The translations under genes and the position numbers were made by a program. A DNA stretch of 42,838 bases from an uncultured Bacteroidales bacterium (GTDB taxonomy: Bacteria; Bacteroidota; Bacteroidia; Bacteroidales; Paludibacteraceae). This document shows positions 1,879 to 41,600 of the stretch, piece after piece. The notes beneath the pieces are model-generated. The model saw nothing but the letters and a program-made list of their open reading frames with translations, searched no databases and was not told the origin of the DNA. The stretch lies in contig CACZEL010000018.1 in the NCBI GenBank assembly GCA_902780235.1, positions 1-42,838 on the forward strand, written 5' to 3'. How positions within the stretch are numbered: position 1 is the first letter of the stretch; each line of letters begins with the position of its first letter.

Positions 1879-1910
1879 CATTAGCTATTAGCAGTTGGCT
1901 ATTAGCTTAT
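1879..1910. repeat. Degenerate heptamer array (GCTAATA / GCCAACT words)
   Basis: On the minus strand the words GCTAATA, GCCAACT, GCTAATA and GCTAATG follow each other at an exact 7-nt period, directly after the exbB stop codon. Confidence 0.75.
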
Positions 1911-2728
1911 TATTTCTTCTGGGCAGCGTCGTACTCTACTACGATATCGAGCAAGCTAATCGAGCTGTCTTCCATTTCGTTAACCAGACCCTCAACGAGG
2001 CTGAGGATGTAGTTGTAGAACAACTGGAGAACAACAGCAATAATCAAACCGAGGAGGGTAGTCAACAGAGCGACCTTAATACCACCGGCAACAACGGTAG
2101 CCGAGATATCACCAACTTGCTGGATCTTATCGAATGCCTCGATCATACCAATAATGGTACCCAAGAATCCGAGAGACGGGGCGATAGCGATGAAGAGGGT
2201 GATCCAAGAGAGGTTCTTCTCCAAGAGACCGAGTTGAACGCCACCATAGGAAGCAACGGTCTTCTCTACTACGTCGATACCTTCGTCATAGCGGCTCAGA
2301 CCCTGATAGAAGATCGAAGCGACAGGACCACGGGTGTTACGGCAAACCTCAAGAGCTTTCTCGATACCACCGGCTTTGAGAGCAGCCTCAATATTAGCGA
2401 GCAACTCTTTGGTGTTCGTTTTGCTCAAGGACAGATAGATAATACGCTCGATACAGAGTGCGAGACCGAATACGAGGGTCACGAGGGTCAGAGCCATAAA
2501 GCCTGCGCCACCTTCGATAAATTTGGTCTTCAGCGTTTTGTGGAGCGCTACCATACCTCCGGCTTCCTCAGCAGGAGCCTCAGCTACTTCTTCAGCTGCA
2601 GGAGCAGCCTCATCTACTTGTTCAACAGCAGCCTCTTCTACAGCAGCTGCTTCATCTTGTGCCATCATAACTGCGCTACCAAAGGTAAGCATCGCCAGCA
2701 CGGTCAGAGTTGCAAAAATTTTTTTCAT
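1910..2728 (-). CDS. exbB: MotA/TolQ/ExbB-family proton channel with signal peptide
   Basis: 272 residues. Unlike E. coli ExbB it begins with a signal peptide (about 1-23, ending VMMAQ). An Ala/Glu-rich periplasmic stretch (about 24-57, EEAAVEQ, then PAEEAGG) leads to a first membrane helix (about 76-96). The MotA/ExbB domain follows: a cytoplasmic part, then two helices that include LGFLGTIIGMIEAF and the TLLGLIIAVVLQL region, which line the proton path in this family. N-terminal extensions with a signal peptide are common in Bacteroidetes ExbB. It is the first gene of the operon. No promoter box is visible just upstream, so transcription may come from the tRNA-Ser promoter at 3049-3080. Confidence 0.92.
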   Translation of the reverse strand: MKKIFATLTVLAMLTFGSAVMMAQDEAAAVEEAAVEQVDEAAPAAEEVAEAPAEEAGGMVALHKTLKTKFIEGGAGFMALTLVTLVFGLALCIERIIYLSLSKTNTKELLANIEAALKAGGIEKALEVCRNTRGPVASIFYQGLSRYDEGIDVVEKTVASYGGVQLGLLEKNLSWITLFIAIAPSLGFLGTIIGMIEAFDKIQQVGDISATVVAGGIKVALLTTLLGLIIAVVLQLFYNYILSLVEGLVNEMEDSSISLLDIVVEYDAAQKK

Positions 2729-2927
2729 GAGAATAATAAATTAATTTAAGTTATTGTGTTTATTTGTGTTTTCATACAACGGGGATTTCTTATCTCACCA
2801 TTCGGTTCGAACGATTATTTCTTCGAAATCCCCACAGCCTGCCCGGCGGGCATCCTGTGCAAAGCTTTTGGTCTTCGCCGCGTCAGTAAGCGAGCTTTCT
2901 TCCCCGGCTTGACGAAAAATCTTTTGC
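2729..2927 (-). other. Leader between tRNA-Ser and exbB with two inverted repeats
   Basis: This 199-nt gap has no credible gene. GGGGATTTC (2781-2789) is inverted at 2825-2833 around a 35-nt loop that itself contains TTCGAA. TGCCCGGCGGGCA forms a second small dyad just after it. It may be the untranslated leader of the exb operon if transcription runs on from tRNA-Ser. No known riboswitch fold was recognised. Confidence 0.4.
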
Positions 2928-3014
2928 GGAGAGACGGGGATTCGAACCCCGGAAACCCTTTTGGAGTTTACACGCTTTCCAGGCGTGCCTCTTCAACCAC
3001 TCGAGCATCTCTCC
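2928..3014 (-). tRNA. tRNA-Ser (anticodon GGA)
   Basis: The cloverleaf has acceptor GGAGAGA paired with TCTCTCC, anticodon loop CTGGAAA on a CACGC/GCGTG stem, a long serine-type variable arm and a canonical T-loop TTCGAAT. The D-loop keeps GG. CCA is not encoded (GCA follows). A promoter lies about 35 nt upstream at 3049-3080. Confidence 0.95.
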
Positions 3015-3048
3015 TTCGCGCATCAAGGCGCTTTTTCATAATCGGCTA

Positions 3049-3080: not shown

Positions 3081-3104
3081 CATTTATGCATTTTTTCTAT
3101 TATT

Positions 3105-3872
3105 TTATGCAAAAATTTGCCTTGCATTGGCATTTGTCACCTCAATAATGTGTTCAACGGAGCAATTATAGACTTGTGCGAGCCGTTCCGCGACATGAAT
3201 CATGAATCGACTCTCATTGCGTTCTCCCCGATGCGGAACAGGAGCCATGTAAGGTGCGTCCGTCTCCAAAACGATACGTTCCAAAGGCACGACATCCAAT
3301 TTCTCCGCCAACTTGCTGTTCTTGAACGTCAATACGCCGCCTATTCCAAGATAGAATCCCATGTTCAAAATCTGTTGTGCCGTTTCACGACTTCCGTTGA
3401 AGCAATGAAAAACTCCTCGTCCCCCTACCTTTTTTACAATGCGCATGATGTCCTCTGTCGCCTCTCTATTGTGCAAGATGACCGGTAAGTCCAGTTCTTT
3501 GGCCAATTCCATTTGTAGCCGCAAGACTTCCTGCTGTTCCTCCTTATAGGTCTTGTCCCAATAATAGTCCAAGCCGATCTCGCCGATCGCAACCAGTTCG
3601 TTCCGATGGTCCCGAATAGCTTGTTCAACGATCGTCAGTTGTTCTTGCCAATCGTCTTTGACATCTTCCGGATGTAAGCCCAAAGCCGGATAACAATAAC
3701 CGGGATGCGCACGACATACCTGCATGACCGTTTCAATCGAGGCCACATTGACACCGGGCACGATCATCAACTCTACCCCGCTCTCTCGCTGAAGCGCAAT
3801 GACTTCCTCGCGGTCGGCATCAAAAGCCTCTTCATCAATATGGCAATGTGTATCTATCAAACCATTTACCAT
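3105..3872 (-). CDS. tatD: TatD-family metal-dependent DNase
   Basis: About 255 residues from the chosen start, matching the usual TatD length of 255-265. TatD proteins are TIM-barrel metal-dependent hydrolases with 3'-5' exonuclease or D-aminoacyl-tRNA deacylase-like activity in the cytoplasm. Visible metal motifs are DTHCHID at the N-terminus, GEIGLDYYW, the histidine of HNREA, HCFNG and ETDAPY near the end, all in the expected order. The frame is open to 3923, but that extension overlaps queA. The ATG at 3870-3872 directly precedes the conserved GLIDTHCH. Another ATG at 3885-3887 is possible. Both start codons lie inside a repeat array of AAATGGT-like words just behind the queA stop, so the array itself supplies the starts. 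Confidence 0.92.
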   Translation of the reverse strand: MVNGLIDTHCHIDEEAFDADREEVIALQRESGVELMIVPGVNVASIETVMQVCRAHPGYCYPALGLHPEDVKDDWQEQLTIVEQAIRDHRNELVAIGEIGLDYYWDKTYKEEQQEVLRLQMELAKELDLPVILHNREATEDIMRIVKKVGGRGVFHCFNGSRETAQQILNMGFYLGIGGVLTFKNSKLAEKLDVVPLERIVLETDAPYMAPVPHRGERNESRFMIHVAERLAQVYNCSVEHIIEVTNANARQIFA

Positions 3873-3899
3873 TTTATCATTTACCATTTGGTCATTTAC
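3861..3899. repeat. Degenerate array (AAATGGT words) spanning the queA stop and tatD start
   Basis: On the minus strand GTAAATGACCAAATG is followed by GTAAATGATAAAATG and GTAAATGG, a 15-nt unit made of 7-8 nt words. It contains the queA stop codon and both candidate tatD ATGs. Confidence 0.7.
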
Positions 3900-5073
3900 G
3901 ATTGAGAATACTGGAATCGCCATAACTCAGGAAGCGGAAATCATGACTCAGGGCATAGTCATAGATTGTGTGCCAATCGCCGCCGACAAAAGCGCTCACT
4001 AACAACAGCAAAGTCGATTGAGGTTGGTGGAAATTGGTGATCAGTTGATCAACAACATGGAAGGTATAACCGGGTTTGATCATGATCTGCGTCTCGGCAT
4101 GGAGCGTCTGTTGACCTGTTTTGTCCAAATAATCGAGGAGAGCCTGCAATGAGTCGAAAGTCGAAAGTCGAAAGTCAAAAGCCTCTTCGTAGGGTTCGAA
4201 CTGAGACACGGTCGCATTTTCCGGGTGACATCCGATAAAATAGAGCGATTCAAGGGTACGCATAGAAGTCGTACCGACCGCCACTATCTTACCTAAGTTG
4301 TCCCGAATCGCCTCAATTGCCTCTTTGGGAACGGCGATGATCTCCGTGTGCATCGTGTGCTCGTTGGCGTCGGCGGTCTTGACCGGCAAGAAAGTACCGG
4401 CTCCGACATGCAGCGTCAGTTCAGTCGTCTTAATACCCCGCTCATGCAGATCCGCGAGCACTTTCTCCGTAAAATGCAGACCGGCGGTAGGAGCTGCTAC
4501 CGAACCCTTGATGCGCGAATATACCGTTTGGTAGGTGCGCAGGTCCGACTCCTCGGTCTTGCGGTTGAGGTACGGAGGAATCGGCAGTTCTCCTGCGGCA
4601 TCAAGGATCTCGGCGAAGGACACATTCTCTTCGCTCCAATCAAAACGAACCGCAAACGTATTCCCTAAACTTTGCTCCTTGTACGCACGAAGCGTAAAGT
4701 TGCCGGCCTTCAATTCGATCGCCTCATCATGCCATTTCTTCGCGTTGCCGACCATACATTTCCATGTACAACCGGTGGTAGAACCCAAGGATAACTGGTA
4801 GTCATGCGGCATGAGCGGTTCAAGGCAGAAAACCTCGATTCGGGCACCCGTCGGTTTATGAAACTCCAGACGAGCTTGTATCACGCGCGTATTATTATAT
4901 ATAAGGAGTGCACCCGGCGCGATGTAGTCGCCGACGTTGTAAAAACGATCCTCTGACACCTGTCCGTCACGATAGACCAGCAGTTTGCTGTGGTCACGCT
5001 CGGCCAGCGGATATTTGGCAATGCGCTCGTCCGGAAGCGGGTAATTATAATCAGCTATGTAAATGGGCTTCAT
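3892..5073 (-). CDS. queA: S-adenosylmethionine:tRNA ribosyltransferase-isomerase
   Basis: 393 residues. QueA transfers and isomerises the ribosyl part of AdoMet onto preQ1 in tRNA wobble position 34, making epoxyqueuosine. Family motifs are the N-terminal YPLPDERIAKYPLAERD, NNTRVIQARL, SVAAPTAGLHFT, LHVGAGTFLPV and the C-terminal LITNFHQPQSTLLLLVSAF. The residues FDFRLSTFDS (about 297-306) are encoded by an in-frame array of GACTTTC words, in a surface-loop position just after a low-complexity stretch. The gene starts inside the end of rlmL (23-nt overlap) and its stop lies in the array that supplies the tatD start, so rlmL-queA-tatD is one tightly coupled RNA/DNA-metabolism operon. Confidence 0.96.
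   Translation of the reverse strand: MKPIYIADYNYPLPDERIAKYPLAERDHSKLLVYRDGQVSEDRFYNVGDYIAPGALLIYNNTRVIQARLEFHKPTGARIEVFCLEPLMPHDYQLSLGSTTGCTWKCMVGNAKKWHDEAIELKAGNFTLRAYKEQSLGNTFAVRFDWSEENVSFAEILDAAGELPIPPYLNRKTEESDLRTYQTVYSRIKGSVAAPTAGLHFTEKVLADLHERGIKTTELTLHVGAGTFLPVKTADANEHTMHTEIIAVPKEAIEAIRDNLGKIVAVGTTSMRTLESLYFIGCHPENATVSQFEPYEEAFDFRLSTFDSLQALLDYLDKTGQQTLHAETQIMIKPGYTFHVVDQLITNFHQPQSTLLLLVSAFVGGDWHTIYDYALSHDFRFLSYGDSSILNRK
4152..4180. repeat. In-frame heptamer array in queA (GACTTTC words)
   Basis: On the coding strand GACTTTC occurs three times at a strict 7-nt period, then GACTC. It is translated as part of QueA. Confidence 0.8.
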
Positions 5074-11110: not shown

Positions 11111-11112
11111 AA

Positions 11113-11152
11113 CTTTAACCTTTCAACTTTCAATTTTCACCTTTCACCTTTA
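11113..11152. repeat. Heptamer array (AAAGGTG words) between bamA and skp
   Basis: On the minus strand AAAGGTG, AAAGGTG, AAAATTG, AAAGTTG and AAAGGTT run at a strict 7-nt period from the bamA stop to within 5 nt of the skp start, and include its purine-rich ribosome-binding site. Confidence 0.85.
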
Positions 11153-15171: not shown

Positions 15172-16527
15172 CTTTATCAATAACCGAAATGCATCTGTCA
15201 CTCGTTTGACCGGTACTATCTCTATAGTAAATCGTTTACAGTCAATCTTCTGTTCTGCAGGAATCATGATTCGCTTAAAGCCCAATTTCTGCGCCTCAGC
15301 GATACGCTGTTCGATTCGGTTAACCGATCGGATCTCACCTGCCAAACCCACTTCGCCACAAAGGCATGTACTCGGATCCAACGCAATATCCATGTTACTG
15401 CTCAGCACAGCCGCCAAGACCGCCAAGTCAATAGCCGGGTCTTGTACCCTTAATCCGCCGGCGATATTCAGGAATACATCTTTCTGCAGCAACTTAAACC
15501 CTACGCGTTTCTCCAGCACTGCCAACAACATGTTCAATCGTCTGCCGTCAAACCCTGTGGAGGAACGTTGAGGTGTACCGTACGCTGCCGATGAGACCAG
15601 TGCCTGCACCTCAATCAAGAACGGCCGCACACCTTCCACCGCCGCAGCAATAGCGATGCCGCTTAGTCCTTCGCGCGACGTAGAAAGCAACAACTCCGAT
15701 GGGTTCGTTACCTCTCGCAAACCGTCTTGTCGCATCTCATAGATACCCAACTCAGAGGTCGAACCGAAACGGTTCTTCTGCGCCCGCAGGATTCGGTACA
15801 TATACTGCTGATCGCCTTCGAACTGAAGCACGGTGTCCACGATATGTTCCAGCACTTTCGGTCCGGCCAGCGACCCCTCTTTGTTGATATGTCCGATGAT
15901 GATAAACGGAATATTACGCGTCTTGGCAAAATCCAATATCCGTGCCGCACACTCGCGCACTTGACTCAACGAACCGATAGAAGCCTCAATAGCATCGGTG
16001 CCTACCGTCTGAATCGAATCAATCACCACGATCTCGGGTTCTAACTCTTTGACTTGCTCCAAGATACGCTCCAGCGATGTCTCCGCAGAGATATACAGGT
16101 TCTCCGCATTGCCCGCTAACCGTTCGGCACGCAGTTTCAACTGCTTCGCACTCTCTTCACCCGAAGCGTAGAAGGTCTTGCGCTCCCCCATCTGCATCAA
16201 CACTTGCAATGCTAACGTCGATTTACCGATACCGGGTTCACCGCCCAACAACACCAGACTTCCGGGCACTAAACCGCCACCCAACACGCGGTTCAACTCT
16301 CCGTTGCACATGTCGATCCGCATCTCGTTCGTCGCTACCACATCTTGCAGACGCTGAGGAAGATTACTTCCGAGATTTCGAGATCTCGATACTTCGACAC
16401 CTCGACCTTTTTCGATCACTTCCTCTTCATACGTTCCCCACTCTCCGCAAACCGGACAGCGACCGAGCAGCTGCGGGGCCTTAGCTCCGCAGGACGAACA
16501 GACATATTGTATCGTTGCTTTTGCCAT
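15163..16527 (-). CDS. radA: DNA repair protein RadA (Sms)
   Basis: 454 residues, normal length. RadA is a hexameric RecA-like helicase that promotes branch migration in recombination. An N-terminal C4 zinc finger (CSSCGAKAPQLLGRCPVCGEW) precedes the ATPase domain with Walker A GGEPGIGKST, Walker B IVVIDSIQT and the RadA-specific KNRFGSTSELGIYEM. A C-terminal Lon-like domain follows. The linker between zinc finger and ATPase (about residues 35-52, EKGRGVEVSRSRNLG) is encoded by an octamer array of TCGA-led words. The gene overlaps the rnz stop by 1 nt. Confidence 0.97.
   Translation of the reverse strand: MAKATIQYVCSSCGAKAPQLLGRCPVCGEWGTYEEEVIEKGRGVEVSRSRNLGSNLPQRLQDVVATNEMRIDMCNGELNRVLGGGLVPGSLVLLGGEPGIGKSTLALQVLMQMGERKTFYASGEESAKQLKLRAERLAGNAENLYISAETSLERILEQVKELEPEIVVIDSIQTVGTDAIEASIGSLSQVRECAARILDFAKTRNIPFIIIGHINKEGSLAGPKVLEHIVDTVLQFEGDQQYMYRILRAQKNRFGSTSELGIYEMRQDGLREVTNPSELLLSTSREGLSGIAIAAAVEGVRPFLIEVQALVSSAAYGTPQRSSTGFDGRRLNMLLAVLEKRVGFKLLQKDVFLNIAGGLRVQDPAIDLAVLAAVLSSNMDIALDPSTCLCGEVGLAGEIRSVNRIEQRIAEAQKLGFKRIMIPAEQKIDCKRFTIEIVPVKRVTDAFRLLIKGN
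16370..16416. repeat. In-frame octamer array in radA (TCGAnnnn words)
   Basis: On the coding strand TCGAGGTG, TCGAAGTA, TCGAGATC, TCGAAATC and TCGG recur every 8 nt. The array encodes the linker after the zinc finger. Confidence 0.7.
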
Positions 16528-17357: not shown

Positions 17358-19327
17358 GCGAGTTTTTCTAAAACTCGATTGCCTAAAGCCGTTTTTTTCT
17401 CAATATGTTCAAGCACCGCTTTCACGAACGAGTTGGATTCAAACGAACCGCGAACCTCTTCGAAATCAGCCTCCGCCTGATGACGGTCTCCGTCCACGCC
17501 AAAACCGGTCTGACTGTTCAAATCGAACTCCTTGCGGGCATCGTTATAAACCATCTTATCGAGGTTCACTACCGCGTTCTGCCATTCCCTAACCGTCTTC
17601 TGCAACTGCTCCAAGCTCACTTTCTCTACGCTGCAGCCCCATACTTGCTCCAGTTTCTCCAACGCCCAAGTCCACTCGTACGAGTAGTAATGGGCATGCA
17701 TCTGCTCCAAACGAGCCTGGATATCGCTTAGACTCAACGCGCCCGCTTGGATGTCATCCAACAGACGTTTCACTTCGTTTCTCGGAGCGATCAAACCTGC
17801 CATATCTACCCAATCGCCCGTTCCGGCATCGCTGTCCGGACGCAGGGCCTTGCGTAACTCGTCCATCGTCTTCCACTCGCTTTTCTCCAAGCGGCTGATG
17901 AGACTGTTACCCAAGAATTTCTGAATACCGATCGTATAGAGTTCCACGCCATGCTTGAGAGACGAGTTACGGATCTTGCAGTTTCGATAGCCGTAAACCT
18001 CTGTGTTCTCTCCGCTCAGCGCCACCAACTCATTGAGCACTTCGCGACCACGCCACATCTTCTGTACCGTGTACGGACTCAGCAGGTTGAAATTGATCTG
18101 ATCCAACTTATGCGGATCTTTTCGATTATCACGTTTCGGCCATTTTTGTGCGTCACGGATCGTACCTACGGTACGCAGGTTTGCACCCGGCACTAAGAAA
18201 CTCTCCGATTGGTTCTCAATCAGATAAGAGAACGGCAGATCGCTCGTGTCCGCATGGTGGGTATGACGACCCATTACCAGACTGAACGCACCGATTTTGG
18301 ACGGCCACAACAGGTAACTGTCTGATGTCGTCTTTGCGCCGCGCTCGGCAATGCCCTGATGGATCGGGCCCAACTTATACATATGGTTACTCTGGTTACT
18401 ACCCGAACCGGCGTTCAAGAACGAGAACATACCTGCGATAAGCAGCGTACTCTTATGGTGAGTTACCGTATAAGGACCGGCAAAGATCGCACATGCCTCG
18501 CCGTGCATGCCTTGACAGTTCGAGAAGAACAGACTCTCACCTGCCGAATAGTGCTTGTCAAAGATACAACCCTGACCGACAAAACACTTATCTACCAAGG
18601 TTGAGTCTCCGATCTCTACGCCCGAAGCGATGATAAAATTAGCGCACTTCACACCACTTCCAAGACGAACCGGCGCCTGCTCATTCGAGTTGATCGTTCC
18701 GTTCTTCAAACGGCTCACGCCCGTCAGTTCTGCAAAATCACCCACACGCACGTTCTTGATCGAACCGCAGTTCAGAATACGTACGTGATCACCGATATAG
18801 CCGTGATCGGAAGCATGCTCCTCGGCATAGGCATCAATCAGTTTCTCCACCTGATGGATCATCTCCGGGCGGTGACGATAAAGCGTCAAGATATACGCCA
18901 GACTCGCACTTAACTCATTGAAAATAGGGATCTCGCGACCACCTCCTTCGTTCATCACCGGCACACGTACACCATTACCGAAAGTGGTCTTACCATCCAC
19001 AAGGATCGCGTTCACGTTCTCGATACAGGTGTTGCAACCAATATGATAATTGGCGATGTAATTATGGATATTATACAGATGCGCATCGTCACCTACCTCG
19101 CAGTTATGCAAGGTCGCGTTATAGATACCCGAATGGATCTTCAACCCGCCCGGCAATTCTATCTCACGACGAAAAGCGCCTATCTGGTTATGTCCGGAGA
19201 AACGGGTATGACGCACGTATTGCGCATCAAAATCCTGCGCCACTTCCACCTCAGCCCAATTGGTCGCCGAGCAACCCTGTGCCTCCATCTGCGCAATCTC
19301 TTGCGCTGTCAATGAACGATAGTTCAT
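17348..19327 (-). CDS. DUF4954-family protein with left-handed beta-helix repeats
   Basis: 659 residues. The first 400 residues have the hexapeptide periodicity of a left-handed beta helix, for example NATLHNCEVGDDAHLYNIHN, GSIKNVRVGDFAELTGVSRL and IASGVEIGDSTLVDKCFVG. Histidine-rich loops (YTVTHHKS, MGRHTHHAD) resemble sugar-nucleotide acyl- or nucleotidyltransferase active-site edges. The C-terminal third is helical. This matches the Bacteroidetes-specific DUF4954 family, whose function is unknown to me. Sugar-nucleotide or cell-wall precursor modification is only a guess from the fold. It follows dnaN after a 24-nt A/T-rich heptamer array. Confidence 0.85.
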   Translation of the reverse strand: MNYRSLTAQEIAQMEAQGCSATNWAEVEVAQDFDAQYVRHTRFSGHNQIGAFRREIELPGGLKIHSGIYNATLHNCEVGDDAHLYNIHNYIANYHIGCNTCIENVNAILVDGKTTFGNGVRVPVMNEGGGREIPIFNELSASLAYILTLYRHRPEMIHQVEKLIDAYAEEHASDHGYIGDHVRILNCGSIKNVRVGDFAELTGVSRLKNGTINSNEQAPVRLGSGVKCANFIIASGVEIGDSTLVDKCFVGQGCIFDKHYSAGESLFFSNCQGMHGEACAIFAGPYTVTHHKSTLLIAGMFSFLNAGSGSNQSNHMYKLGPIHQGIAERGAKTTSDSYLLWPSKIGAFSLVMGRHTHHADTSDLPFSYLIENQSESFLVPGANLRTVGTIRDAQKWPKRDNRKDPHKLDQINFNLLSPYTVQKMWRGREVLNELVALSGENTEVYGYRNCKIRNSSLKHGVELYTIGIQKFLGNSLISRLEKSEWKTMDELRKALRPDSDAGTGDWVDMAGLIAPRNEVKRLLDDIQAGALSLSDIQARLEQMHAHYYSYEWTWALEKLEQVWGCSVEKVSLEQLQKTVREWQNAVVNLDKMVYNDARKEFDLNSQTGFGVDGDRHQAEADFEEVRGSFESNSFVKAVLEHIEKKTALGNRVLEKLACI

Positions 19328-19355
19328 TAATTCTTAATTTTTAATTTTTAATTAA
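19327..19355. repeat. Heptamer array (AATTAAA words) before the DUF4954 start
   Basis: On the minus strand AATTAAA, AATTAAA, AATTAAG and AATTAATG fill the gap between dnaN and the next gene at a 7-nt period and run into its ATG. Confidence 0.75.
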
Positions 19356-21515: not shown

Positions 21516-21726
21516 TTTTCATAAATTTTAGCGTAAAAAGCAGAATAACTGCGGGTACAGGGGTCTGTAACCCTATATAATCGTCCGCGTATGGTCAAAT
21601 GAATAACCTACTAATCACCTACTAATAACCTACTAAACACATACTAATTATATACTAATCGCGTAGTATAATACAGGAATACGTAGGCAAAAACAAAAAA
21701 CTAATACAACGCAAACACAAAACGAC
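21516..21726. other. Non-coding gap after murI with an 11-nt array
   Basis: No gene is supported here. The gap holds the 11-nt array at 21604-21669 and A/T-rich sequence before the shared terminator. A GGGTCTGTAACCC dyad lies at about 21561-21573. Confidence 0.5.
21604..21669. repeat. Undecamer array (nnnCCTACTAA words)
   Basis: Five copies of an 11-nt word ending CTACTAA or ATACTAA (ends at 21614, 21625, 21636, 21647 and 21658) plus a decayed sixth copy. The period equals about one DNA helical turn. Confidence 0.8.
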
Positions 21727-23943: not shown

Positions 23944-25398
23944 TTATCCGACAGAGCCTTCAAGACTCACTTGCAGAAGCTTCTGCGCCTCGACAGCAAA
24001 CTCCATCGGCAGTTTGTCCATGACCTCTTTGGCATATCCGTTCACGATCAACCCAACCGCGTCCTCCAATCCTATCCCTCGTTGCTGGCAGTAGAACAAC
24101 TGATCTTCATTGATCTTACTCGTCGTTGCCTCATGTTCCACCGTTGCCGTCGGGTTCATGATGATCATATCAGGGAACGTGTGCGCACCGCACTTGTCCC
24201 CCAATAGCAAACTATCGCATTGACTGTAATTCCTTGCATTCTCGGCTTTCGCGCCCATCTTCACCAGACCACGGTACGCGTTCTGGCTATGCCCAGCGGA
24301 GATACCTTTGGAGATGATGCGTGAGCGGGTGTTTTTACCGATATGGATCATCTTCGTTCCCGTATCCGCCTGTTGGTAATTATTGGTTACGGCTACCGAA
24401 TAGAACTCTGCCGTTGAGTTGTCGCCTCGCAGAATACAGGACGGATATTTCCATGTGATCGCACTACCCGTTTCTACCTGCGTCCAACTCAAGCGTGCGT
24501 TCTCGTGCGTGATGCCGCGTTTGGTTACGAAATTATAAATTCCGCCCTTACCGTTTTTGTCTCCCGGATACCAGTTTTGCACGGTTGAGTACTTCACCTC
24601 CGCGTCTTTGTGTACCACGATTTCCACGATTGCAGCATGCAACTGATTCTCATCCCTCATCGGCGCCGTACACCCCTCCAAATAGGACAAATACGCGCCC
24701 TCATCTGCAACCAACAATGTCCGCTCAAACTGACCTGTATTACCGGCATTGATTCGGAAATACGTACTCAGCTCCATCGGGCATCGTACCCCTTTCGGCA
24801 CATAGACAAAACTTCCGTCAGAAAACACAGCCGAGTTCAAGGCTGCATAGAAATTATCGGTCGGCGGCACAACAGAACCCAAATACTTCTGTACCAACTC
24901 CGGATACTCGCGTACGGCTTCGCTGATCGAACAGAAGATAATTCCCTTCTCCGCTAAGGTCTCCCGAAACGTCGTCTTCACGCTCACCGAATCCATCACG
25001 GCATCCACCGCCATGTTTCCTGCCAGCGCCGCACGTTCTTCCAACGGAATACCGAGCTTGTCGAAGGTCTTCATGATCTCAGGGTCAATCTCATCGGAAG
25101 GTTGTTGGCTGTTGGCTGTTGGCTGTTGGCTCTTCGTTTTTGGGGCAGCGTAATAAGAGATGGCTTGGAAATCGATCTCGGGTATATTGAGGTGCGCCCA
25201 GGTCGGCACTTGCATCGTCTGCCATTTACGGAAAGCCTTCAAACGGAACTCTAACAACCATTCCGGTTCATGTTTCTTCGCCGAAATCAACCGAACGATA
25301 TCCTCGTTCAGTCCCGCCGGTACGATCTCCGTCTCTACATCGGTCGTAAAGCCGTACTTGTACTCCTGTTCCGTTATGTCCTTGATGATTTCTTCCAT
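23944..25398 (-). CDS. sufB: Fe-S cluster scaffold protein SufB
   Basis: 484 residues, usual length about 470-495. SufB is the Fe-S assembly scaffold that works with SufC and SufD. Conserved stretches are [72 protein letters not shown] and [20 protein letters not shown]. The segment [15 protein letters not shown] (about residues 88-102) is encoded by a CCAACAG heptamer array and lies in the poorly conserved N-terminal region. SufC, SufD and SufS genes are not adjacent, which is unusual. The start codon lies 6 nt after a strong hairpin that follows tRNA-Cys, so translation begins with almost no leader. Confidence 0.97.
25101..25132. repeat. In-frame heptamer array in sufB (CCAACAG words)
   Basis: On the coding strand AGCCAAC repeats four times at a strict 7-nt period, translated as SQQPTAN plus SQQP. 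Confidence 0.88.
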
Positions 25399-28155: not shown

Positions 28156-29415
28156 TTATTCGACGTATAATACTAATCCTTTTAAATACTCTCCTTCCGG
28201 GTGATAAATATTGATCGGATGATCTTGCGGCTGATGCAACTGATGCAAGATCCGCACTTTTCTTCCCACCTGCGCCGCAGCACTGAACACGGCCAAACGG
28301 AACGCCTCTTTATCTACCGCTTGCGAACAAGAGAACGTGAACAATAGTCCTCCCTTTCGAATCATCTCGATCGCCTTCGCATTGATGCGCTGATAGCCCC
28401 TCAAGGCATTCTTCACCGCATCCCGATGCTTTGCAAAAGCAGGCGGGTCCAGAATAATGAGATCGTACGTCTTTCCTGCTTCTTTCTGTGCGGTCAGATA
28501 CTCAAACGCATCAGCCGCAACGGCAGTATGATTGGTCGCTTCAGGAAAATTCTTCGCCACATTGATATTCACCAGATCAATCGCTTTCTGACTGACATCC
28601 ACCGAATCCACGCTCTTCGCACCGCCTCGCAAGGCATACAACGAGAAACCACCCGTGTAGCAGAACATATTCAGTACATCCTTATCCTTCGCATAGCGCT
28701 CTACCAAGGCTCGGTTCTCCCGCTGATCTACAAAGAATCCTGTCTTCTGTCCCCTCAACCAGTCGATGCGGAACTGGAGTCCGTTCTCAATGCTCCAAAA
28801 CTCTTCTGACTCCCGCCCTTGAGGGGAGGGCTGGGGAGGGGTTATTATCCATCCTGTCTTCTCCCCCTCAATAGGAGCTTTGAATGGTAAAGTATCGTCG
28901 GATTTATAATAGACATTTTGGATCTGCGGCACGACCTCCACCAAAGCCTCAGCGATCTCTTTTCGGAACACATGCATACCTACCGAGTGCGCCTGTACGA
29001 CCGCAGTATCGGCATATACATCCACGATCAATCCCGGCAACCAATCTCCCTCTCCATGCACCAACCGATAGGTATCATTAAAAAGCTTTTGGCTCTTAGC
29101 TCTTAGCTCTTGGCTCACAAGTCCTATGGACTTTCTTACTTCGTACGCAGCCCGGATTCGTTCTTTCCAAAAATCCTTCGGCAATGCCTCCACCCCGAAT
29201 GCCAAGATTCGCACTGCGATAGAGCCCACCTGCCAATGACCGACACCTAACACCTCATTCGCTGTTGAACGGACGCACACTACCTCACCCTCTTCAGGTG
29301 CATCGCCCTTATGCTTGGCATCCAGTACTACCTTCGCGATCGCTCCGCTAAACACCCACGGGTGAAAACGCTTCAGCGACTCTTCTTTATGTGGCTTTAA
29401 AATGACAGTTGTCAT
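28156..29415 (-). CDS. rlmI: RlmI-type 23S rRNA m5C methyltransferase carrying two inserted repeats
   Basis: 419 residues against about 395 in E. coli RlmI (m5C1962). A PUA domain (about 1-75, KRFHPWVFSGAIAKV) and a middle domain precede the methyltransferase domain: VLNMFCYTGGFSLYALRGGA, then DVSQKAIDL, LIILDPPAFAKHR and FTFSCSQAVD with the catalytic cysteine. Two segments look inserted: SQELRAKSQKLFND (about 100-113), from an AGCTAAG heptamer array, and ITPPQPSPQGRESEEF (about 196-211), from a GC-rich palindromic element. Both lie between conserved blocks, so activity is likely kept. It shares an operon with the MTAN-like gene upstream and the exonuclease downstream. Confidence 0.92.
   Translation of the reverse strand: MTTVILKPHKEESLKRFHPWVFSGAIAKVVLDAKHKGDAPEEGEVVCVRSTANEVLGVGHWQVGSIAVRILAFGVEALPKDFWKERIRAAYEVRKSIGLVSQELRAKSQKLFNDTYRLVHGEGDWLPGLIVDVYADTAVVQAHSVGMHVFRKEIAEALVEVVPQIQNVYYKSDDTLPFKAPIEGEKTGWIITPPQPSPQGRESEEFWSIENGLQFRIDWLRGQKTGFFVDQRENRALVERYAKDKDVLNMFCYTGGFSLYALRGGAKSVDSVDVSQKAIDLVNINVAKNFPEATNHTAVAADAFEYLTAQKEAGKTYDLIILDPPAFAKHRDAVKNALRGYQRINAKAIEMIRKGGLLFTFSCSQAVDKEAFRLAVFSAAAQVGRKVRILHQLHQPQDHPINIYHPEGEYLKGLVLYVE
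28811..28847. repeat. In-frame GC-rich palindromic element in rlmI
   Basis: CCCTTGAGGGGAGGG and GGGGAGGGGTTATTA match the element at 34628-34665 over most of about 33 positions. It is translated as ITPPQPSPQGRES. Confidence 0.75.
29083..29117. repeat. In-frame heptamer array in rlmI (AGCTAAG words)
   Basis: On the coding strand AGCCAAG, AGCTAAG, AGCTAAG, AGCCAAA and AGCTTTT follow at a strict 7-nt period, translated as SQELRAK plus SQKLF. Confidence 0.88.
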
Positions 29416-30170: not shown

Positions 30171-31448
30171 ATGGCAAAAAAGCTAATTTTTCTCTTAATG
30201 GTGGTTTGCACGCTCTCCGCACAAGCGGTGGAGCGTGTTTTGTTAGAACAACTCCAAGCCGATTGGTCTTCTTACACCAACCGCGCAGTATGCATCACTA
30301 CACCGCTCATCGTTTGCGGCAGTTTTTATGACTCACTAATCCTTGCCCCGCAGCGGCTCTTCTGTCCCGAAGAGCGTGCAATCGGTTTGGCAGACGGTGA
30401 CAGCACGATGTACTATGACCTGCTTGCGCAGAACCAAGCAGCCGGCATCGTTGTTCATTGTCGCAATAACTACTACAACGTGCGTTGCGGAGACATCATC
30501 CGTAACCTCGAAGCGCGTGTTACCGGCGAGCGACACTTGCTGACCGGAAAATCCCTCTCTACGCGACATGCACCGGCAGATAAGTTACCGAATCCCAAGA
30601 AAAACGAACTGCGAGTAGTAGGCGCGAACATCGAGAACTACTTCGCCGACCTTGGCGGCTATGCCCATAAACGCACTACCACCGCTCAACAAGCGGTCAA
30701 GACCAAAAAACTCGTCAAAGCCCTAAAGGCAATGCACGCAGACATCTATGCGCTATGCGAGATGCAGGTTGGCGACAAAGCGCCCACCATGCTCCTCGAA
30801 GCCCTCAACAAGGGCGGTAAGAAATACGCTTTTGTCTCTATGCCGCTCGAGAATATGGATCGTATCGGAGGATGTTTTATTTATGATACGGAACGTGTGC
30901 GCACGTACGCGCAACCCCTCTCCGCCTACAAGGACACTGCCAGCCATTATTACGGACGTATGTTCACCGTACCGTTTGAAGAGATCCGTACCGGAGAACA
31001 TCTCATCATCGGCATCAACCACTTCAAGTCCAAAAGACCCGGTCGTACACAGTATGACACCAACCTCCGTCGCATGCAGAACGCGGATTCGCTTTTAGCC
31101 ATGCTCCCGAACGCCGTACAACGTTTCGGAGATGAAGACATCTTGCTGCTGGGCGATTACAACTGCTACACCCAAGAGCAACCCATCCAGACCATCGTTC
31201 GTGCCGGGTACGCCGACATGCTGCCTTTGGGCAACGACAATGACTACTCCTATAGTTTCAAAGGGGAAGCCGGCTACCTCGATCGCTGTTTTGCCAGCCC
31301 TTCGATGGCTACGCAGATCGTTCGGGTTCGCCCGTGGCACATCAACGCCGATTGGTACTACTCCCACGGTGCGTATAAGATGAAAGACAAATCCCTTCAC
31401 CGCTACGCCGACCACGATCCAATCATCGTAGATATATATCTACGATAG
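30171..31448 (+). CDS. Secreted endonuclease/exonuclease/phosphatase-family nuclease
   Basis: 425 residues with signal peptide MAKKLIFLLMVVCTLSAQA. The N-terminal part (about 25-120) resembles an OB-fold-like segment seen before the catalytic domain in NucH/ExeM-type extracellular nucleases. The catalytic domain (about 145-425) has VVGANIENYF, ALCEMQVGD (catalytic Glu), GINHFKSKRPG, LLLGDYNCYTQE and the terminal YADHDPIIVDIYL, the complete metal and His/Asp set of the family. It probably degrades extracellular DNA. The ATG lies 1 nt after the initiator tRNA; upstream sequence is tRNA acceptor, with no ribosome-binding site. An inverted repeat array and a terminator follow. Confidence 0.9.
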   Translation: MAKKLIFLLMVVCTLSAQAVERVLLEQLQADWSSYTNRAVCITTPLIVCGSFYDSLILAPQRLFCPEERAIGLADGDSTMYYDLLAQNQAAGIVVHCRNNYYNVRCGDIIRNLEARVTGERHLLTGKSLSTRHAPADKLPNPKKNELRVVGANIENYFADLGGYAHKRTTTAQQAVKTKKLVKALKAMHADIYALCEMQVGDKAPTMLLEALNKGGKKYAFVSMPLENMDRIGGCFIYDTERVRTYAQPLSAYKDTASHYYGRMFTVPFEEIRTGEHLIIGINHFKSKRPGRTQYDTNLRRMQNADSLLAMLPNAVQRFGDEDILLLGDYNCYTQEQPIQTIVRAGYADMLPLGNDNDYSYSFKGEAGYLDRCFASPSMATQIVRVRPWHINADWYYSHGAYKMKDKSLHRYADHDPIIVDIYLR

Positions 31449-31523
31449 TTTGAAAGTTTGATGGTTTGATAGTTTGAACGACATCAAACGCGAAGCATCA
31501 AACAATATCAAACAACTTCAAAC
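31446..31523. repeat. Octamer array followed by its inverted counterpart
   Basis: Four GTTTGAnn words (AGTTTGAA, AGTTTGAT, GGTTTGAT, AGTTTGAA) at 8-nt spacing begin at the nuclease stop. Four TCAAAC words follow at looser spacing, so the two halves can fold into a long imperfect hairpin. Confidence 0.75.
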
Positions 31524-31527
31524 ACAT

Positions 31528-33931: not shown

Positions 33932-33966
33932 GCTGCTTATAGAACTCTTTTTGTTCAAATCGGCTG

Positions 33967-33998: not shown

Positions 33999-34034
33999 GA
34001 AAAACGCTTTTTTTTGAAAAAAAATGCAAAAAAA

Positions 34035-34066
34035 TTTGCTCATGTCAAAAAAAAGCAGTACTTTTG
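34035..34066 (+). promoter_or_regulatory. Promoter of tRNA-Lys
   Basis: TTTG (34035-34038), a 20-nt spacer with A8-GCAG, then TACTTTTG (34059-34066) followed by GCACCCGCTTTTGA. Confidence 0.87.
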
Positions 34067-34099
34067 CACCCGCTTTTGAAAAAAGGCATACTACAGATT

Positions 34100-35333: not shown

Positions 35334-36210
35334 ACAAATAAGGATATTGGTTTTTCAACTCTTCGTTCGTCTCAAACAATTCTTTCAGGTTCTTGATCGC
35401 TAACGGGATCGACTCTAAAAAATGCGGCTTGCGCTCAAAATAACCCCGATAGCCATATGCGCCAAGTACCTGCAGCGTCCGGAACAACACAAAATGCGGG
35501 AGTGCCTTCTTCCATTCGACAATCGATAATCGATCATCGATAATCGCTAATTCTTCCAAATACGCCTCAATCATCTTCTCCCTTACCTCCGGCGCGAAGT
35601 TTGCCTTCGCTTGCCACAACAGCGACGCTACATCATATTGCGTCGGACCGCGACGACCTCCCTGAAAATCGATAAAGTACGGCTTTCCGTCCTTAATCAT
35701 GATATTTCGACTCTGACAATCCCGGTACAAGAACGTATCCGCCGGCTGCGCCAAAATAACCCGGACCATCGTATCGAAATCATCTTCCAACTTAGGCTCC
35801 GAGAACTCAATCTTCGTGCCCTTCAAGAAGCAGTACTTGAAATAGTTGAGGTCCCAACGGATTGATCGCTCGTCCATCGACGGTACAGGAAAACATACCG
35901 ACCAATCGAAATCGCGCGCGCCCGTGACCTGTATATGCGCGAGGGCGCGTATCGCGCGTTCTAATAAGGAAAGGTCATCCAGATGATCGAACAGCAAGGT
36001 ATCGCCCAAATCCTCTTGGGTATAACTCATCTCATCCTCGCTCACCCAATACAGCTCAGGCACCGGCAGACCAAGCGCGTGAAAATGCCGCGCCATATAG
36101 ATGAACGCCCGGTTCTCATCGAGGTTCGTTCCCTGCACGCGAATGACCGATCGCCCGGTCTCATCCTTCTCCCGCGTATATACCCTATTCGATCCCTGCT
36201 GTTGAATCAT
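35299..36210 (-). CDS. AmgK-like sugar kinase (aminoglycoside phosphotransferase fold)
   Basis: 303 residues from the ATG at 36210; a GTG three codons earlier is possible. The catalytic loop FLYRDCQSRNIMIKDGKPYF and metal loop FIDFQGGRRGPTQYDVASLL are typical of the AmgK branch, which phosphorylates MurNAc or GlcNAc at C1 for MurU. Its gene order with RapZ-C and MurU-like genes supports a cell-wall sugar salvage role. AIIDDRLSIVEW (about residues 225-236) is encoded by a CGATTAT heptamer array. The ribosome-binding site (GAAAGG just before ATG) comes from another heptamer array. Confidence 0.85.
   Translation of the reverse strand: MIQQQGSNRVYTREKDETGRSVIRVQGTNLDENRAFIYMARHFHALGLPVPELYWVSEDEMSYTQEDLGDTLLFDHLDDLSLLERAIRALAHIQVTGARDFDWSVCFPVPSMDERSIRWDLNYFKYCFLKGTKIEFSEPKLEDDFDTMVRVILAQPADTFLYRDCQSRNIMIKDGKPYFIDFQGGRRGPTQYDVASLLWQAKANFAPEVREKMIEAYLEELAIIDDRLSIVEWKKALPHFVLFRTLQVLGAYGYRGYFERKPHFLESIPLAIKNLKELFETNEELKNQYPYLYAISNDLLFLL
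35519..35552. repeat. In-frame heptamer array in the AmgK-like gene (ATTATCG words)
   Basis: On the coding strand ATTAGCG, ATTATCG, ATGATCG, ATTATCG and ATTG at a 7-nt period, translated as LAIIDDRLSIV. Confidence 0.82.
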
Positions 36211-36211: not shown

Positions 36212-36244
36212 CCTTTCACCTTTCACTTTTCACCTTTCAACACC
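36212..36244. repeat. Heptamer array (AAAGGTG words) at the AmgK-like ribosome-binding site
   Basis: On the minus strand AAAGGTG, AAAAGTG, AAAGGTG and AAAGG at a 7-nt period end 1 nt before the ATG, filling the gap behind the lipid-kinase gene. Confidence 0.85.
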
Positions 36245-37873: not shown

Positions 37874-37939
37874 TGTAGTATATATTTATATTTTTCTTCA
37901 AATTCGGGGATTCTTCGCACAATTACACGAAAAATCGCG

Positions 37940-37971
37940 CAAAGGTACTGCTTTTTTTTGAGATGACCAAA
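37940..37971 (-). promoter_or_regulatory. Promoter of rpmB-rpmG-DUF4295
   Basis: On the minus strand TTTG (37968-37971), a 20-nt spacer with A8-GCAG, then TACCTTTG (37940-37947). Confidence 0.85.
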
Positions 37972-38142
37972 TTTTTTTGCAAAAAAATGCGATTTTTCTT
38001 CTTTTTGCTCCCAATTCCCCCTATCTTCAAAGACTTGTTTGTCCTCTTCAGCCAACAATGATTGTACTCGCAGAGTTGTGGATATTGATGATAAAAAGTA
38101 CTAAAAGTAAAAGTGTTTATCTATGTTTATTTTCTTAGACAA
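37972..38142. other. Non-coding gap upstream of rpmB
   Basis: No gene is supported. A minus-strand frame stays open here but has no family similarity and crosses the rpmB promoter. One DnaA-box-like 9-mer (ATATCCACA, minus strand, near 38085) is present; a single copy is not meaningful. Confidence 0.4.
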
Positions 38143-38237: not shown

Positions 38238-38270
38238 TTTTAACGATTTAACCGTTTAACGGCTTAACGC
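38238..38270. repeat. Octamer array (CGGTTAAA words) over a stop codon
   Basis: On the minus strand GCGTTAAG, CCGTTAAA, CGGTTAAA and TCGTTAAA follow at an 8-nt period. The second word contains the TAA stop of the gene at 38256. Confidence 0.8.
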
Positions 38271-38621
38271 GGAGCGTTTTCTACGAAGCGCAATGACTCC
38301 GCAGAAAACAGCTGCGCATAATATCAACGGCAACACAGCATCACCGATAGGAGATTCTGTAGAACCCGTTGATACATCACCCGGGTTACGACCGGACTCG
38401 CCCATTCGTCTCGGACCACTTGATGCTTTCGCAGGTGAATAGGATTCCGTGGTAGTAGCCATCTCGGTCGCTGCCGTAGCTCCTACGGCATTGATCTGCG
38501 GCGCATAACTGCTACCGGTACCTTGCATGGTAGAAGTCGACTTCCACTCTTGCTGTTGCGCCATGGTCGGCAGCGCTATCAGCGCCACCGCCATGAGTAT
38601 CATTACAATTCTTGCTTTCAT
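38256..38621 (-). CDS. Small secreted protein with C-terminal membrane anchor and basic end
   Basis: 121 residues from the ATG at 38621 (MKARIVMILMAVALIALPTM). Signal peptide 1-22, then a low-complexity Ser/Thr/Ala/Gly region (about 25-90) with no fold. The C-terminus is SPIGDAVLPLILCAAVFCGV and IALRRKRSALSR: a short motif, one hydrophobic helix and a basic cluster. That three-part layout resembles sortase/exosortase substrates, though I do not know an enzyme for this exact PIGD motif. Encoded directly after the 1278-residue secreted protein and probably co-transcribed. A heptamer array supplies its ribosome-binding site and another covers its stop. Confidence 0.75.
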   Translation of the reverse strand: MKARIVMILMAVALIALPTMAQQQEWKSTSTMQGTGSSYAPQINAVGATAATEMATTTESYSPAKASSGPRRMGESGRNPGDVSTGSTESPIGDAVLPLILCAAVFCGVIALRRKRSALSR

Positions 38622-38630
38622 ATCTGATTT

Positions 38631-38660
38631 CCTTTCAATTTTCACTTTTCACCTTTCATT
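38631..38660. repeat. Heptamer array (AAAAGTG words) between the two secreted-protein genes
   Basis: On the minus strand AAAGGTG, AAAAGTG, AAAATTG and AAAGG run at a 7-nt period from the stop of the large gene to the ribosome-binding site of the small one. Confidence 0.87.
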
Positions 38661-41600
38661 TAACTCGGTTTCCTTGTGCGTCGAATACTACGCCATCTTT
38701 GACGATGTACAAGATTCCATCAACCATCACTTTGCGTGCTCCACTAATCTCTAATCGCTCATCGCTAATCGTTTCAACGTCCGTTGGGGTTTGTGCGATC
38801 GGCGACAACTCCAACTCAAAGCGCTCATCGTACGTGCCTGCCGTCAGGTTAACGGTATAATCCGTCAATGCAAGGTTCGTGCGCGTGTCTGCGACTTTAT
38901 CTATAAGGACTACACCGGTTCCGTAAGTTCCATCCGGCAAAGCGAAGGTATAGTTGCCATCGGCAGCCATCTGTACACCAACCGGCAAGACCGTCACAGT
39001 GTCAGGGATACAGTTACCAGCCATCTTATAGAGTTCTCCCATCGTATAGATGTTCGCACTATTGGCATTGATCATCTTGCTCAAGTCCATATTGAGGTCG
39101 TAACCCATCGTTGCTCCAAACGCCATTCGGCTGATATAAGCCACATCGGCTTCACGCGCGCCTTGTTGGAGTACCAAACGGAGGGTTTGCTCTGTAGTTT
39201 CTTCCTCTTGATGACGTTTGGGAGCGGCAACAGGATTGTCTTGAATAACTACTAATGGGTTTCCTGTATTCCATTTTTGCCATGTAATATCACCTGCGTA
39301 TTGCACAAGGTATGCGTGAGTCGCAGGAATGGCACGATTTGTTGTACTTGTAACCGTGAATTGGGGTTCTCCTGCAGATACACGCCAAGTATAGAAATAT
39401 TTCAGACCATACGCTCCATATTTAGCGAGAGAGTCTTTGTATTGCTCATCTGTCAAATCTGGAGCAAAGAAAGTAGGTGCAACTATTTTAGTACTATCGA
39501 AACTCGGTGAGCCAATAATACGCCAGTTAGAGTCAATCGCACGTCTATCCCAGATTGGGTTATTCTCGCCTTCTGTCGGATCTACATCTTTTGATCTCTT
39601 ATGCCATTTGGTACATTTCAGAGAATCCAATGTTGTAGTAATAGAACCGCTTTCATTAGGTGCAATTGTTAAATCCTTGATGTTTGCCGAAGGGAAGTAC
39701 AAGGTTAGTTTTCCATTTCCTCCCAAAGAACCAGCGAAGCGGCGAGTACCTACACCTTCACCAGCTAAGTTAGTCAAACGAATCACATATCCCTGATTGG
39801 CTTTCAATGTATCAGTAAGATCAAGATCATACCACCAAGCATTGGTTTCTGCCCACCAACCCTTTTCTGCGCGTAGATCACCACGATAGGTCTGAATTAC
39901 CCACGAGTGACTATTTGAACTACCATTGCCGTATCCTTCAATACCGAAGATGTCTTTCACATGACATTCATATGGCAATGAAATCCAATAGTACTCATCA
40001 GTATAGTCCGGAGAAACGGCTTTGTCTGTCATTCTTCGATCTGTATTTACTCCATCTTCCCAATTCTTTTGCGATATCTCAAATGCAGTATAAACACGTG
40101 TGATATCAGTAAGGGGAGTAATAGAACCATTCCCATCTTTATCCCTGATATTCAACACTGTAGGAGCACCATTTTCCGTACGAACGACCATTAAGTTGGA
40201 TTGTAAATCAAATCCTTCAAAGTCTCCATTTGGTTCCCATGCTGCCAACAGCCGATTAGTTTTAAAGTCATAGGTAATAAGCACATGATATGGTTCGGTC
40301 GTCTTACCACCCATTAACTTTTTATCAGTAACCAAGTCAAAAGAAGTAACATATGTAGTGGAAATGGTTGCTGTTGCTTGACCTTTAATATTGGCATCAA
40401 TTGTATAAACCCATGCAGAAGCATCGTTGAAAGAGGCTTCTTCTCCATATGAATCGTCTTTGTTAGGATCTACATTCTCACCTTGTATCTTAATCTTTTT
40501 TCCGCTACCGGCAATGATAGAACGACTAAAATAGTTTGTCGACGGATTATATCCGAAACGTACGTTACCTCCCCATTCTGCACTATCGTAGTCATCAGTT
40601 TTAATGGTAACTCCGTCTGGGGCATTCTCGTCCGCCCCTAACTCTCCGGCCAAATTGTCGTTGTAATCATTTCCGACAGTAGCAATAACTGTTTGTCCAT
40701 TATCAAACCAATCTACCCAATAATAGTTAAACAATTCGCCTGGGAACACAAGCGTGTTCGGAGAGAAATACGTAAATTGTGTACCAATAGTACCATATCT
40801 TCCCTCTCCAGATATTAAGTAATTCGCCGTAGTTGCTTTACAACGTATATGATAATTTCCATCGTAGAAGACGAAATTATTAGTTGTATTACTTCCATTG
40901 AAATCTGCCACATAGACACTATCTTTAGTTATACCAGTGCGAGTGATGGTAGAAGCCATATCTGTCCATGTAGAACCTATTATGTGTTGCAGTGTCAATG
41001 TTCCTGCACTTTGTGCATAGAGCGAGAACTTACCTGCATTCATGAGTGTGTTTGAATAATATGTCTTCGCTCCGGCACAAGCTGATTTCAAACGATAGAA
41101 TTCCACACAAGGATCTATTTGGTGCGTATAACATTTCTTGTAGCCTTCTGTTTGTTGGATATCGTAGCAATTTCCTTCATAAGACGCTTTATCATGGCTC
41201 ATACCTCCATCATAAGTTTGCTGACTTCCATCACTATTTGCCAACATGAATTTATCATATTTAGAATCTAAGGTAACAAAATACCAATCATGTACTCCAT
41301 CATTTGCGATAAATTCAGTAACTGCTTCGCCTGGGAAAGCTGTGTTTTTAACCACATTATCGGCGCTACGGAACATATACAATTTCAATTCACTCCAATC
41401 GAACGTGTTTTGTACTTTAATCTTGTATTTCTCATATACCCGAATCTTCATATCTGCGGCACATAGATAAATGTCTTGTCCGTTGAATGTAAAATGAATG
41501 CGTGCAGAGATGGATTTCATACCTGCTGATGTCGGTGTATACGAAAACGTTCTACTTGTTCCGGAACCGGAAGGTGTACCAGCTAATTTAACACCATCTT

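What the first reader, a model, noticed from the sequence alone, without database searches (positions are those of the whole stretch)
1879..38774. About twenty degenerate near-tandem arrays with a shared 7-nt period but a different word at each locus
Loci at 1879, 3861, 4152, 6847, 11113, 15072, 15138, 19327, 25101, 29083, 29658, 35519, 36212, 38631 and 38743 carry 3-5 imperfect copies of a heptamer. Loci at 16370, 20875, 31446 and 38238 do so with 8 nt, and 21604 with 11 nt. Words fall into groups (AAAGGTG, GCTAATA/GCCAACA, CGATTAG, AATTAAA, AAATGGT, GACTTTC), so the period is conserved better than the sequence. They sit in core genes and gaps alike, roughly one per 2 kb. Heptanucleotide STRR repeats are known in heterocystous cyanobacteria. 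I do not know of a described equivalent with this word diversity in Bacteroidales. A generator acting on length, such as slippage or a templating enzyme, is inferred.
Basis: partly seen in the sequence, partly recalled or inferred. Interest (0 to 1): 0.74.

Follow-up and report, generated by a model that had tools for sequence, protein, structure and literature searches.

The report
Word-swapping heptanucleotide arrays in core genes
A gut bacterium carries many short stretches of a repeated seven-letter DNA word in and between essential genes; related species often carry a different repeated word, or none, at the same spot, so the spot and the rhythm last longer than the word.

Summary
In detail: 19 of the 20 listed loci are short tandem arrays; 6847 is not. 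Lag-7 self-similarity occurs at 9 places in the window and at none in 100 dinucleotide shuffles. The relatives are uncultured, mostly ruminant-gut Bacteroidales/Paludibacteraceae. In 180 kb of own genome chosen by contig position there are 40 period-7 arrays. The main finding comes from relatives: at the orthologous site a relative has a tandem array in 67 of 187 tests, against 78 of 4962 at random sites, but usually with another word. Between genomes 91-96% identical, 42 of 90 mapped arrays persist; between the window and four sisters near 80% identity, 1 of 41. Inside six genes the changes are in frame: 93 of 94 length differences are multiples of three and all 94 stretches stay open. Words are shared within a genome beyond chance and base composition, and one family's copy number is patchy across the genus. 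Best reading: a fast-turnover, genome-wide form of the known 5-11-nt repeats, spread by copying plus slippage and filtered by selection to linkers, signal peptides and gene gaps. A reverse-transcriptase generator is not supported. How words spread is inferred.

The parts
1880..1912 (.). 7-nt array (ATTAGCT) at a gene junction; three of four mapped sisters have another heptad word here
3861..3903 (-). AAATGGT-family array (7+8 = 15-nt super-period) at the N-terminal end of the TatD-family gene, overlapping the end of queA
4152..4181 (+). 30-nt AAAGTCG-family array inside the queA-like gene (about residue 297 of 393), within a stretch (278-326) that does not align to the solved QueA 1yy3
11111..11151 (-). 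AAAGTTG/AAAGGTG array filling the gap between an Omp85/POTRA (BamA-like) gene and an OmpH gene, up to the OmpH start codon
15073..15103 (+). AAAGGTG array, antisense to an outer-membrane protein gene, forming the hydrophobic core of its apparent signal peptide (signal-peptide reading by eye)
   Evidence: same word in L075, L076, L078
15134..15170 (.). 7/13-nt array (TTTCAAT) at the junction of the radA-like and outer-membrane protein genes
16371..16406 (.). 8-nt array in a radA-like gene (name inferred from domains), between zinc ribbon (residues 8-34) and ATPase (from 78); relatives carry 7-, 8-, 11- and 16-nt words
19327..19353 (-). AATTAAA array between the DNA polymerase III beta gene and the DUF4954 gene
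20861..20902 (+). 8/16-nt array in a glutamate racemase-like gene; its residues fall in an insertion relative to the solved 1b73
21602..21660 (.). 11-nt array (AATCACCTACT) in a gene gap; related 11-mers at this site in both mapped relatives (L068, L082)
25103..25131 (-). AACAGCC array in a SufB/SufD-family gene (about residue 89); 6 of 13 relatives are 18 nt shorter, 6 of 13 have arrays of 7, 8 or 9 nt
29084..29116 (.). AGCTCTT array in an RlmI-like gene, between PUA and methyltransferase domains; 27 nt shorter in 3 of 6 relatives, other words in G003 and L067
29659..29682 (.). AGCCAAC array in a 175-aa gene without Pfam match; five of six mapped relatives have an array here, five different words
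31444..31478 (.). 8-nt array at the 3' end of the 30171-31448 reading frame
31496..31524 (.). 10-nt array (CATCAAACAA), not in the original list
35516..35551 (.). 7-nt array (TCGATAA) in a phosphotransferase-family (APH Pfam) gene; not comparable in relatives (unmapped)
36212..36239 (-). AAAGGTG array at the junction of the DAGK-family and phosphotransferase-family genes
38239..38269 (.). 8-nt array (TTTAACGG)
38633..38658 (-). AAAAGTG-type array at the junction before the 38256-38645 reading frame
38744..38771 (.). 7-nt array (CTAATCG) near the 3' end of a 1278-aa reading frame
42646..42672 (.). 8-nt array (TTTGCACT), not in the original list

Best explanation
These are dispersed, short (about 25-40 nt) degenerate tandem arrays, mostly of period 7, that continually turn over in this Bacteroidales lineage. 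Shown: close relatives differ by whole units and by whole arrays; one word family occupies many unrelated loci of one genome; orthologous sites recur as array sites but usually with other words; inside genes they are in frame and open; array peptides near the N-terminus are more hydrophobic than internal ones. Inferred: a short word-bearing segment is copied from elsewhere in the same genome into a site (microhomology or illegitimate recombination); replication slippage then adds or removes units of 7-11 nt (loops too large for MutS repair, recalled); point mutation degrades them; and selection keeps copies only in domain linkers, signal-peptide cores and gaps between genes. They need no specific cellular role; individual copies have become signal-peptide cores or spacers before start codons.
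For: Excess at lag 7. Exact family AGTCRAAAGTCRAAAGTCRAAAG: 45 matches in the own genome, 69 in G007, 41 in G009, 40 in G021, 30 in G001, 20 in G017, but 0-1 in the three nearest sisters G006, G003, G004 and 2 in G002; the pattern read backwards matched once in all 41 genomes (overlapping matches inside one array are counted apart). Within-genome word similarity (at least 6 of 7): 87 of 427 pairs (20.4%), arrays over 300 nt apart, against a mean of 8.1% after free label permutation and 11.0% (maximum 15.9% of 300) after permutation within G+C bins. AAAGTCG family: 16 of 20 end in TCGAAAG, while copies in genes are read in different frames. Site recurrence 67 of 187 against 78 of 4962. Presence/absence and 7-, 14-, 11-nt steps in close pairs. 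Frame: 93 of 94 in six genes, 19 of 78 in four gaps. N-terminal array peptides mean hydropathy 0.19 (n=16), internal -0.96 (n=84), p=0.003.
Against: The copying step was never caught: the only pair with shared unique sequence is one of 134 nt, 88% identical, 1.4 kb apart. Order of variant units is only weakly shared between same-word arrays (6 to 176 of 300 shuffles as high over seven families). Fixed ends are clear in AAAGTCG only; in AATAGCC and AACAGCC the end phase is not significant (p=0.40, 0.65) and in AAAGGTG the start phase is not (p=0.09), and 16 of 19 AAAGTCG arrays lie in genes, where frame selection acts (the 3 outside end in AAAG too). Same-site arrays of non-close genomes share a similar word in 45 of 169 pairs against 410 of 4912 at other sites, so part is inheritance or site bias. 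Several sites hold non-repetitive sequence of similar length in sisters, so replacement rather than insertion is common. Gene boundaries without a window array also carry arrays in relatives often (40 of 245).
Confidence: 0.6

Rival explanations
1. Local slippage only: each array grows from the sequence already at its site; shared words reflect genome composition.
For: Unit-step differences of 7, 14 and 11 nt between close relatives. Periods below 7 are rare: 3 rows with periods 2-6 against 183 with 7, as expected if small loops are repaired; MutS found in 15 of 15 genomes searched.
Against: Word sharing far above 7-mer frequencies and above permutation within G+C bins; wholly different words at one site between genomes 92-94% identical (L066/L069, L070/L071).
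Confidence: 0.18
2. True mini-mobile elements of about 30 nt with defined ends, moved as units by something acting in trans (as RAYT with REPIN, or an RNA intermediate as proposed for cyanobacterial SDRs; both recalled).
For: 30-nt length and end phase of the AAAGTCG family; patchy copy number across the genus; clean presence/absence.
Against: No RT or Y1 transposase tracks the arrays (4 of 18 and 7 of 18 genomes); I saw no target duplication by eye; fixed ends fail in other families; many unrelated words would each need to be a substrate.
Confidence: 0.15
3. Allele import: strains recombine homologously, and a pool of array alleles is shuffled between them.
For: A nearly identical 67-nt array-bearing insertion at one site in L073 and L076, of different clusters, absent in L069, G021 and L075.
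Against: Does not explain how words spread to many loci in one genome, nor how alleles arise.
Confidence: 0.12
4. Arrays are translation or regulatory signals selected for their sequence (for example ribosome binding).
For: AAAGGTG, AAAAGTG and AAAGTTG arrays outside genes, between genes of one strand, are all in sense (11 of 11; 3 more lie between genes of opposite strands); the motif resembles a Shine-Dalgarno sequence (recalled).
Against: 106 of 182 arrays lie inside called genes; words are swapped freely; the class outside genes is biased, because sense words with stops end a reading frame.
Confidence: 0.05

Closest known systems
Long simple sequence repeats of 5-11 nt (Mrazek 2007, seen only as described in PMC4679880)
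   Same: 5-11-nt units with heptanucleotides most abundant in most genomes; polymerase slippage proposed
   Different: Here the arrays are short and degenerate, frequent inside core genes in frame, and recur at orthologous sites with other words
TAACTGA direct repeats of Beggiatoaceae, some Cyanobacteria and five Bacteroidetes (PMC4679880; abstract and sections 3, 12, 15 read)
   Same: Heptads, mostly two to six copies, many just before start codons, some inside reading frames; mobility considered; Paludibacter included
   Different: One word there, mostly intergenic; dozens of words here, 106 of 182 inside called genes
Nostoc trnL intron P6b heptad repeats (PMC4476775; passages)
   Same: One seven-nt repeat class repeatedly replaced by another at a fixed site
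   Different: One structured RNA locus there; genome-wide and often protein-coding here
Small dispersed repeats of Nostoc (Elhai 2008, PMC2527708; seen only in reference lists; content recalled)
   Same: 21-27 nt, often in heptameric tandem repeats, thought mobile
   Different: Some have a conserved predicted structure; not tested here
Rickettsia palindromic elements (PMC10969869; passages)
   Same: Small repeats inserted in frame in unrelated genes
   Different: About 150 bp and palindromic; these are about 30 nt and tandem
Microdiversity loci (PMC2884548; passages)
   Same: Short variable segments, often inside genes without breaking the frame, mostly by replacement
   Different: Most of that diversity is not repeats; here it is periodic repeats

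Membership tests
5-11-nt long simple sequence repeats | Excess of tandem units of 5-11 nt, heptamers most frequent, over chance | tested here: met
5-11-nt long simple sequence repeats | Copy number changes by whole units | tested here: met
   7-, 14- and 11-nt differences in close pairs
TAACTGA repeats | Word TAACTGA | tested here: not met
   Not among the 58 canonical words printed, nor the up to ten printed per genome; no dedicated search was run
Cyanobacterial SDR elements | Conserved secondary structure with compensatory changes (recalled) | not tested
   no fold was computed
Rickettsia palindromic elements | In-frame presence in unrelated genes | tested here: met
   six genes: 93 of 94 differences multiples of three, 94 of 94 open
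Rickettsia palindromic elements | About 150 bp, palindromic | tested here: not met
   median period-7 array length 31 nt, direct tandem units; palindromy not scored formally
REPIN/RAYT | A Y1 (REP-associated) transposase in array-bearing genomes | tested here: not met
   match in 7 of 18 genomes, 6 over cut-off; none in the own genome (78.6% complete)
RT-templated repeat synthesis | An RT gene in array-bearing genomes | tested here: not met
   4 of 18 genomes; many genomes incomplete

The most novel reading that the evidence does not exclude
Period-7 arrays are autonomous sequence units of about 30 nt with fixed ends, spread between loci and between species by an undescribed trans-acting mechanism that accepts many words but fixes the period, and they serve as a steady source of new linkers and signal-peptide cores in core proteins.
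Probability: 0.2. Interest if true: 0.88.

Novelty: new variant of a known kind. Interest (0 to 1): 0.62.

Why it matters
Heptanucleotide excess in bacteria has been reported for years with slippage only proposed as cause. This clade offers many sites, closely related genomes and rapid turnover, so slippage, copying and import can be told apart in isolates or deep population data. It also shows a route by which DNA-level repeats become protein sequence: the same word can give a hydrophilic linker in one orientation and a signal-peptide core in the other.

Tried and rejected
Locus 6847 as a heptad array: rejected. Templating reverse transcriptase: rejected as a general cause. Y1 transposase: no consistent presence. 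Loss of MutS: rejected, found in 15 of 15 genomes. Out-of-frame or bypassed inserts: rejected for six genes, all 94 orthologous stretches open. Unit-order test for descent of whole arrays: weak. First word-similarity test did not exclude neighbouring arrays or composition; repeated with both controls, the signal held. The stop-free-word comparison (75 of 106 in genes, 7 of 56 outside) is partly circular, because a called gene cannot run through a stop; I give it no weight. A self-comparison of own-genome stretches gave 109 non-tandem repeat loci; most of the 40 printed look like AT-rich promoter regions (by eye). Structure prediction was not run; loop positions rest on sequence alignment to solved homologues. 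Gene calls are a crude longest-ORF scheme. Secondary structure of the arrays was not computed.
Full report
Check of the observation. Tandem Repeats Finder lists arrays at 19 of the 20 places named; 6847 has no 7-nt array. With a strict measure (16 of 18 matches) the window holds 9 places at lag 7, none at lags 1-6, 8 and 9, one each at 10, 11, 15, 16, 22 and 30, and three at lag 14; 100 dinucleotide shuffles hold none at lag 7. A sample of 366,938 own-genome bases gives 118 at lag 7, 12 at lag 8, 7 at lag 9, 8 at lag 11 and 74 at lag 14. Its stretches beyond the window were chosen around matches to two window arrays, which inflates the words AAAGTCG and AAATGGT. Ten stretches chosen by contig position (180,000 bases) give 40 period-7 arrays, from 0 to 9 per stretch.

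Whose genome. The own assembly has 2.28 Mb in 58 contigs and is 78.6% complete. The best named relatives of the DUF4954 protein are Bacteroidales and Paludibacteraceae MAGs, many labelled from ruminants, up to 89% identical. Period-7 density varies within the genus, per 100 kb: 50 in the own (biased) sample, 19 in G003, 17 in G009, 16 in G007, 14 in G006, 13 in G021, 11 in G002, 10 in G016, 4 in G004 and G008, 0 in G012 and G015, and 0 in G032 of another family (samples of 40 to 367 kb). Among the 80 named loci, the 17 of Bacteroides, Phocaeicola and Caecibacteroides have at most one lag-7 place each, four of them one.

Sites persist, words do not. I mapped 15 of the window's array sites (those beyond 35 kb found no syntenic match) to five unnamed sisters and 62 of the 80 named loci. 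A relative has a tandem array at the site in 67 of 187 mapped cases, against 78 of 4962 at random positions and 40 of 245 at gene boundaries without a window array (relatives are not independent). The words differ: at radA, 16 arrays carry 11 words of periods 7, 8, 11 and 16; at 29659 five arrays carry five words. At 15073 three mutually close relatives carry the window's own word. By persistence, 42 of 90 mapped arrays are kept between eleven pairs of genomes 91-96% identical (34 unmapped; pairs not independent). Four pairs at 80-87% keep 4 of 35, and the window against G006, G003, G021 and G002 keeps 1 of 41 (39 unmapped). Among period-7 arrays of non-close genomes at one site, 45 of 169 pairs have similar words (at least 6 of 7), against 410 of 4912 at different sites, so some inheritance or site bias remains.

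Words belong to genomes. With arrays over 300 nt apart, 87 of 427 within-genome pairs have similar words (20.4%); permuting genome labels gives 8.1%, permuting within G+C bins 11.0% (maximum 15.9% of 300). With one genome per close cluster it is 78 of 375 against 11.2%. The exact AAAGTCR pattern has 45 matches in the own genome, 0-1 in the three nearest sisters by DUF4954 identity (G006, G003, G004), 40 in the fourth (G021), 2 in the fifth (G002), and 69 in the more distant G007. AAAGGTG and AAATGGT patterns are likewise patchy, with few matches; the backward AAAGGTG control matched once in the own genome and four times in G012. AAAGTCG arrays have fixed ends (start AGTCGAA 12 of 20, end TCGAAAG 16 of 20), and copies inside genes are read in different frames, so the unit is a DNA unit, not a peptide. 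Other families show weaker end phases, and the order of variant units is only weakly shared.

Effect on proteins. In six genes, 93 of 94 length differences between window and relatives are multiples of three and all 94 stretches are open; in four gaps 19 of 78 are multiples of three. Of 182 period-7 arrays in the biased own sample, 106 lie in called genes. Against solved homologues the racemase and methyltransferase arrays fall in insertions and the queA array in an unaligned stretch; in the radA-like gene the array lies between two Pfam domains. N-terminal array peptides are more hydrophobic than internal ones (p=0.003); several antisense arrays form the core of apparent signal peptides, as at window 15073 (by eye).

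Mechanism. Close pairs show 7-, 14- and 11-nt steps, presence/absence (a 35-nt array in L073, absent in G021) and whole replacement. RT and Y1 transposase do not track the arrays and MutS is present. I therefore favour copying plus slippage under selection, at 0.6. The copying step is inferred. A mini-mobile element with fixed ends is the bolder reading.

Comparison with print. Searches on heptanucleotide repeats, small dispersed repeats, long simple sequence repeats, Bacteroidales heptamers, small mobile repeats of cyanobacteria, Rickettsia elements and Nostoc intron repeats showed related phenomena but, in the listings I saw (some cut at 10 to 25 papers, empty), no account of this one. The library lacks most subscription papers. 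The closest are the 5-11-nt repeats and TAACTGA arrays, the Nostoc P6b class replacements, Rickettsia palindromic elements and microdiversity loci.

Noticed in passing
L193:2229-3242 (own genome C23): A retron-like reverse transcriptase, below NCBIfam cut-offs, near an IetA-like AAA ATPase and a weak DrmC-like match: a possible defence island.
   Followed up: partly
L068, L072, L076, L078, L082 in the dnaN-DUF4954 gap; L066, L067, L073, L083 in radA: A palindromic G/C-rich repeat and 16-nt words occupy the same sites as heptad arrays in other relatives.
   Followed up: partly
window 33948-34089, 37921-38016 and many own-genome loci: Dispersed AT-rich sequences with TTTGCA and TACTTTTGCA-like parts, probably Bacteroidota promoters (identification recalled).
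   Followed up: no
L009:11384-11520 and 12850-12990: Two gene starts 1.4 kb apart share 134 nt at 88% identity: an AAAGGTG array with an ACATATAAGG interruption followed by an apparent signal peptide holding an antisense array.
   Followed up: partly
window 38656-42492: A 1278-aa reading frame with no Pfam match.
   Followed up: no
L064, L068, L089, G009 stretches: 11-nt arrays outnumber 7-nt ones in some relatives.
   Followed up: no
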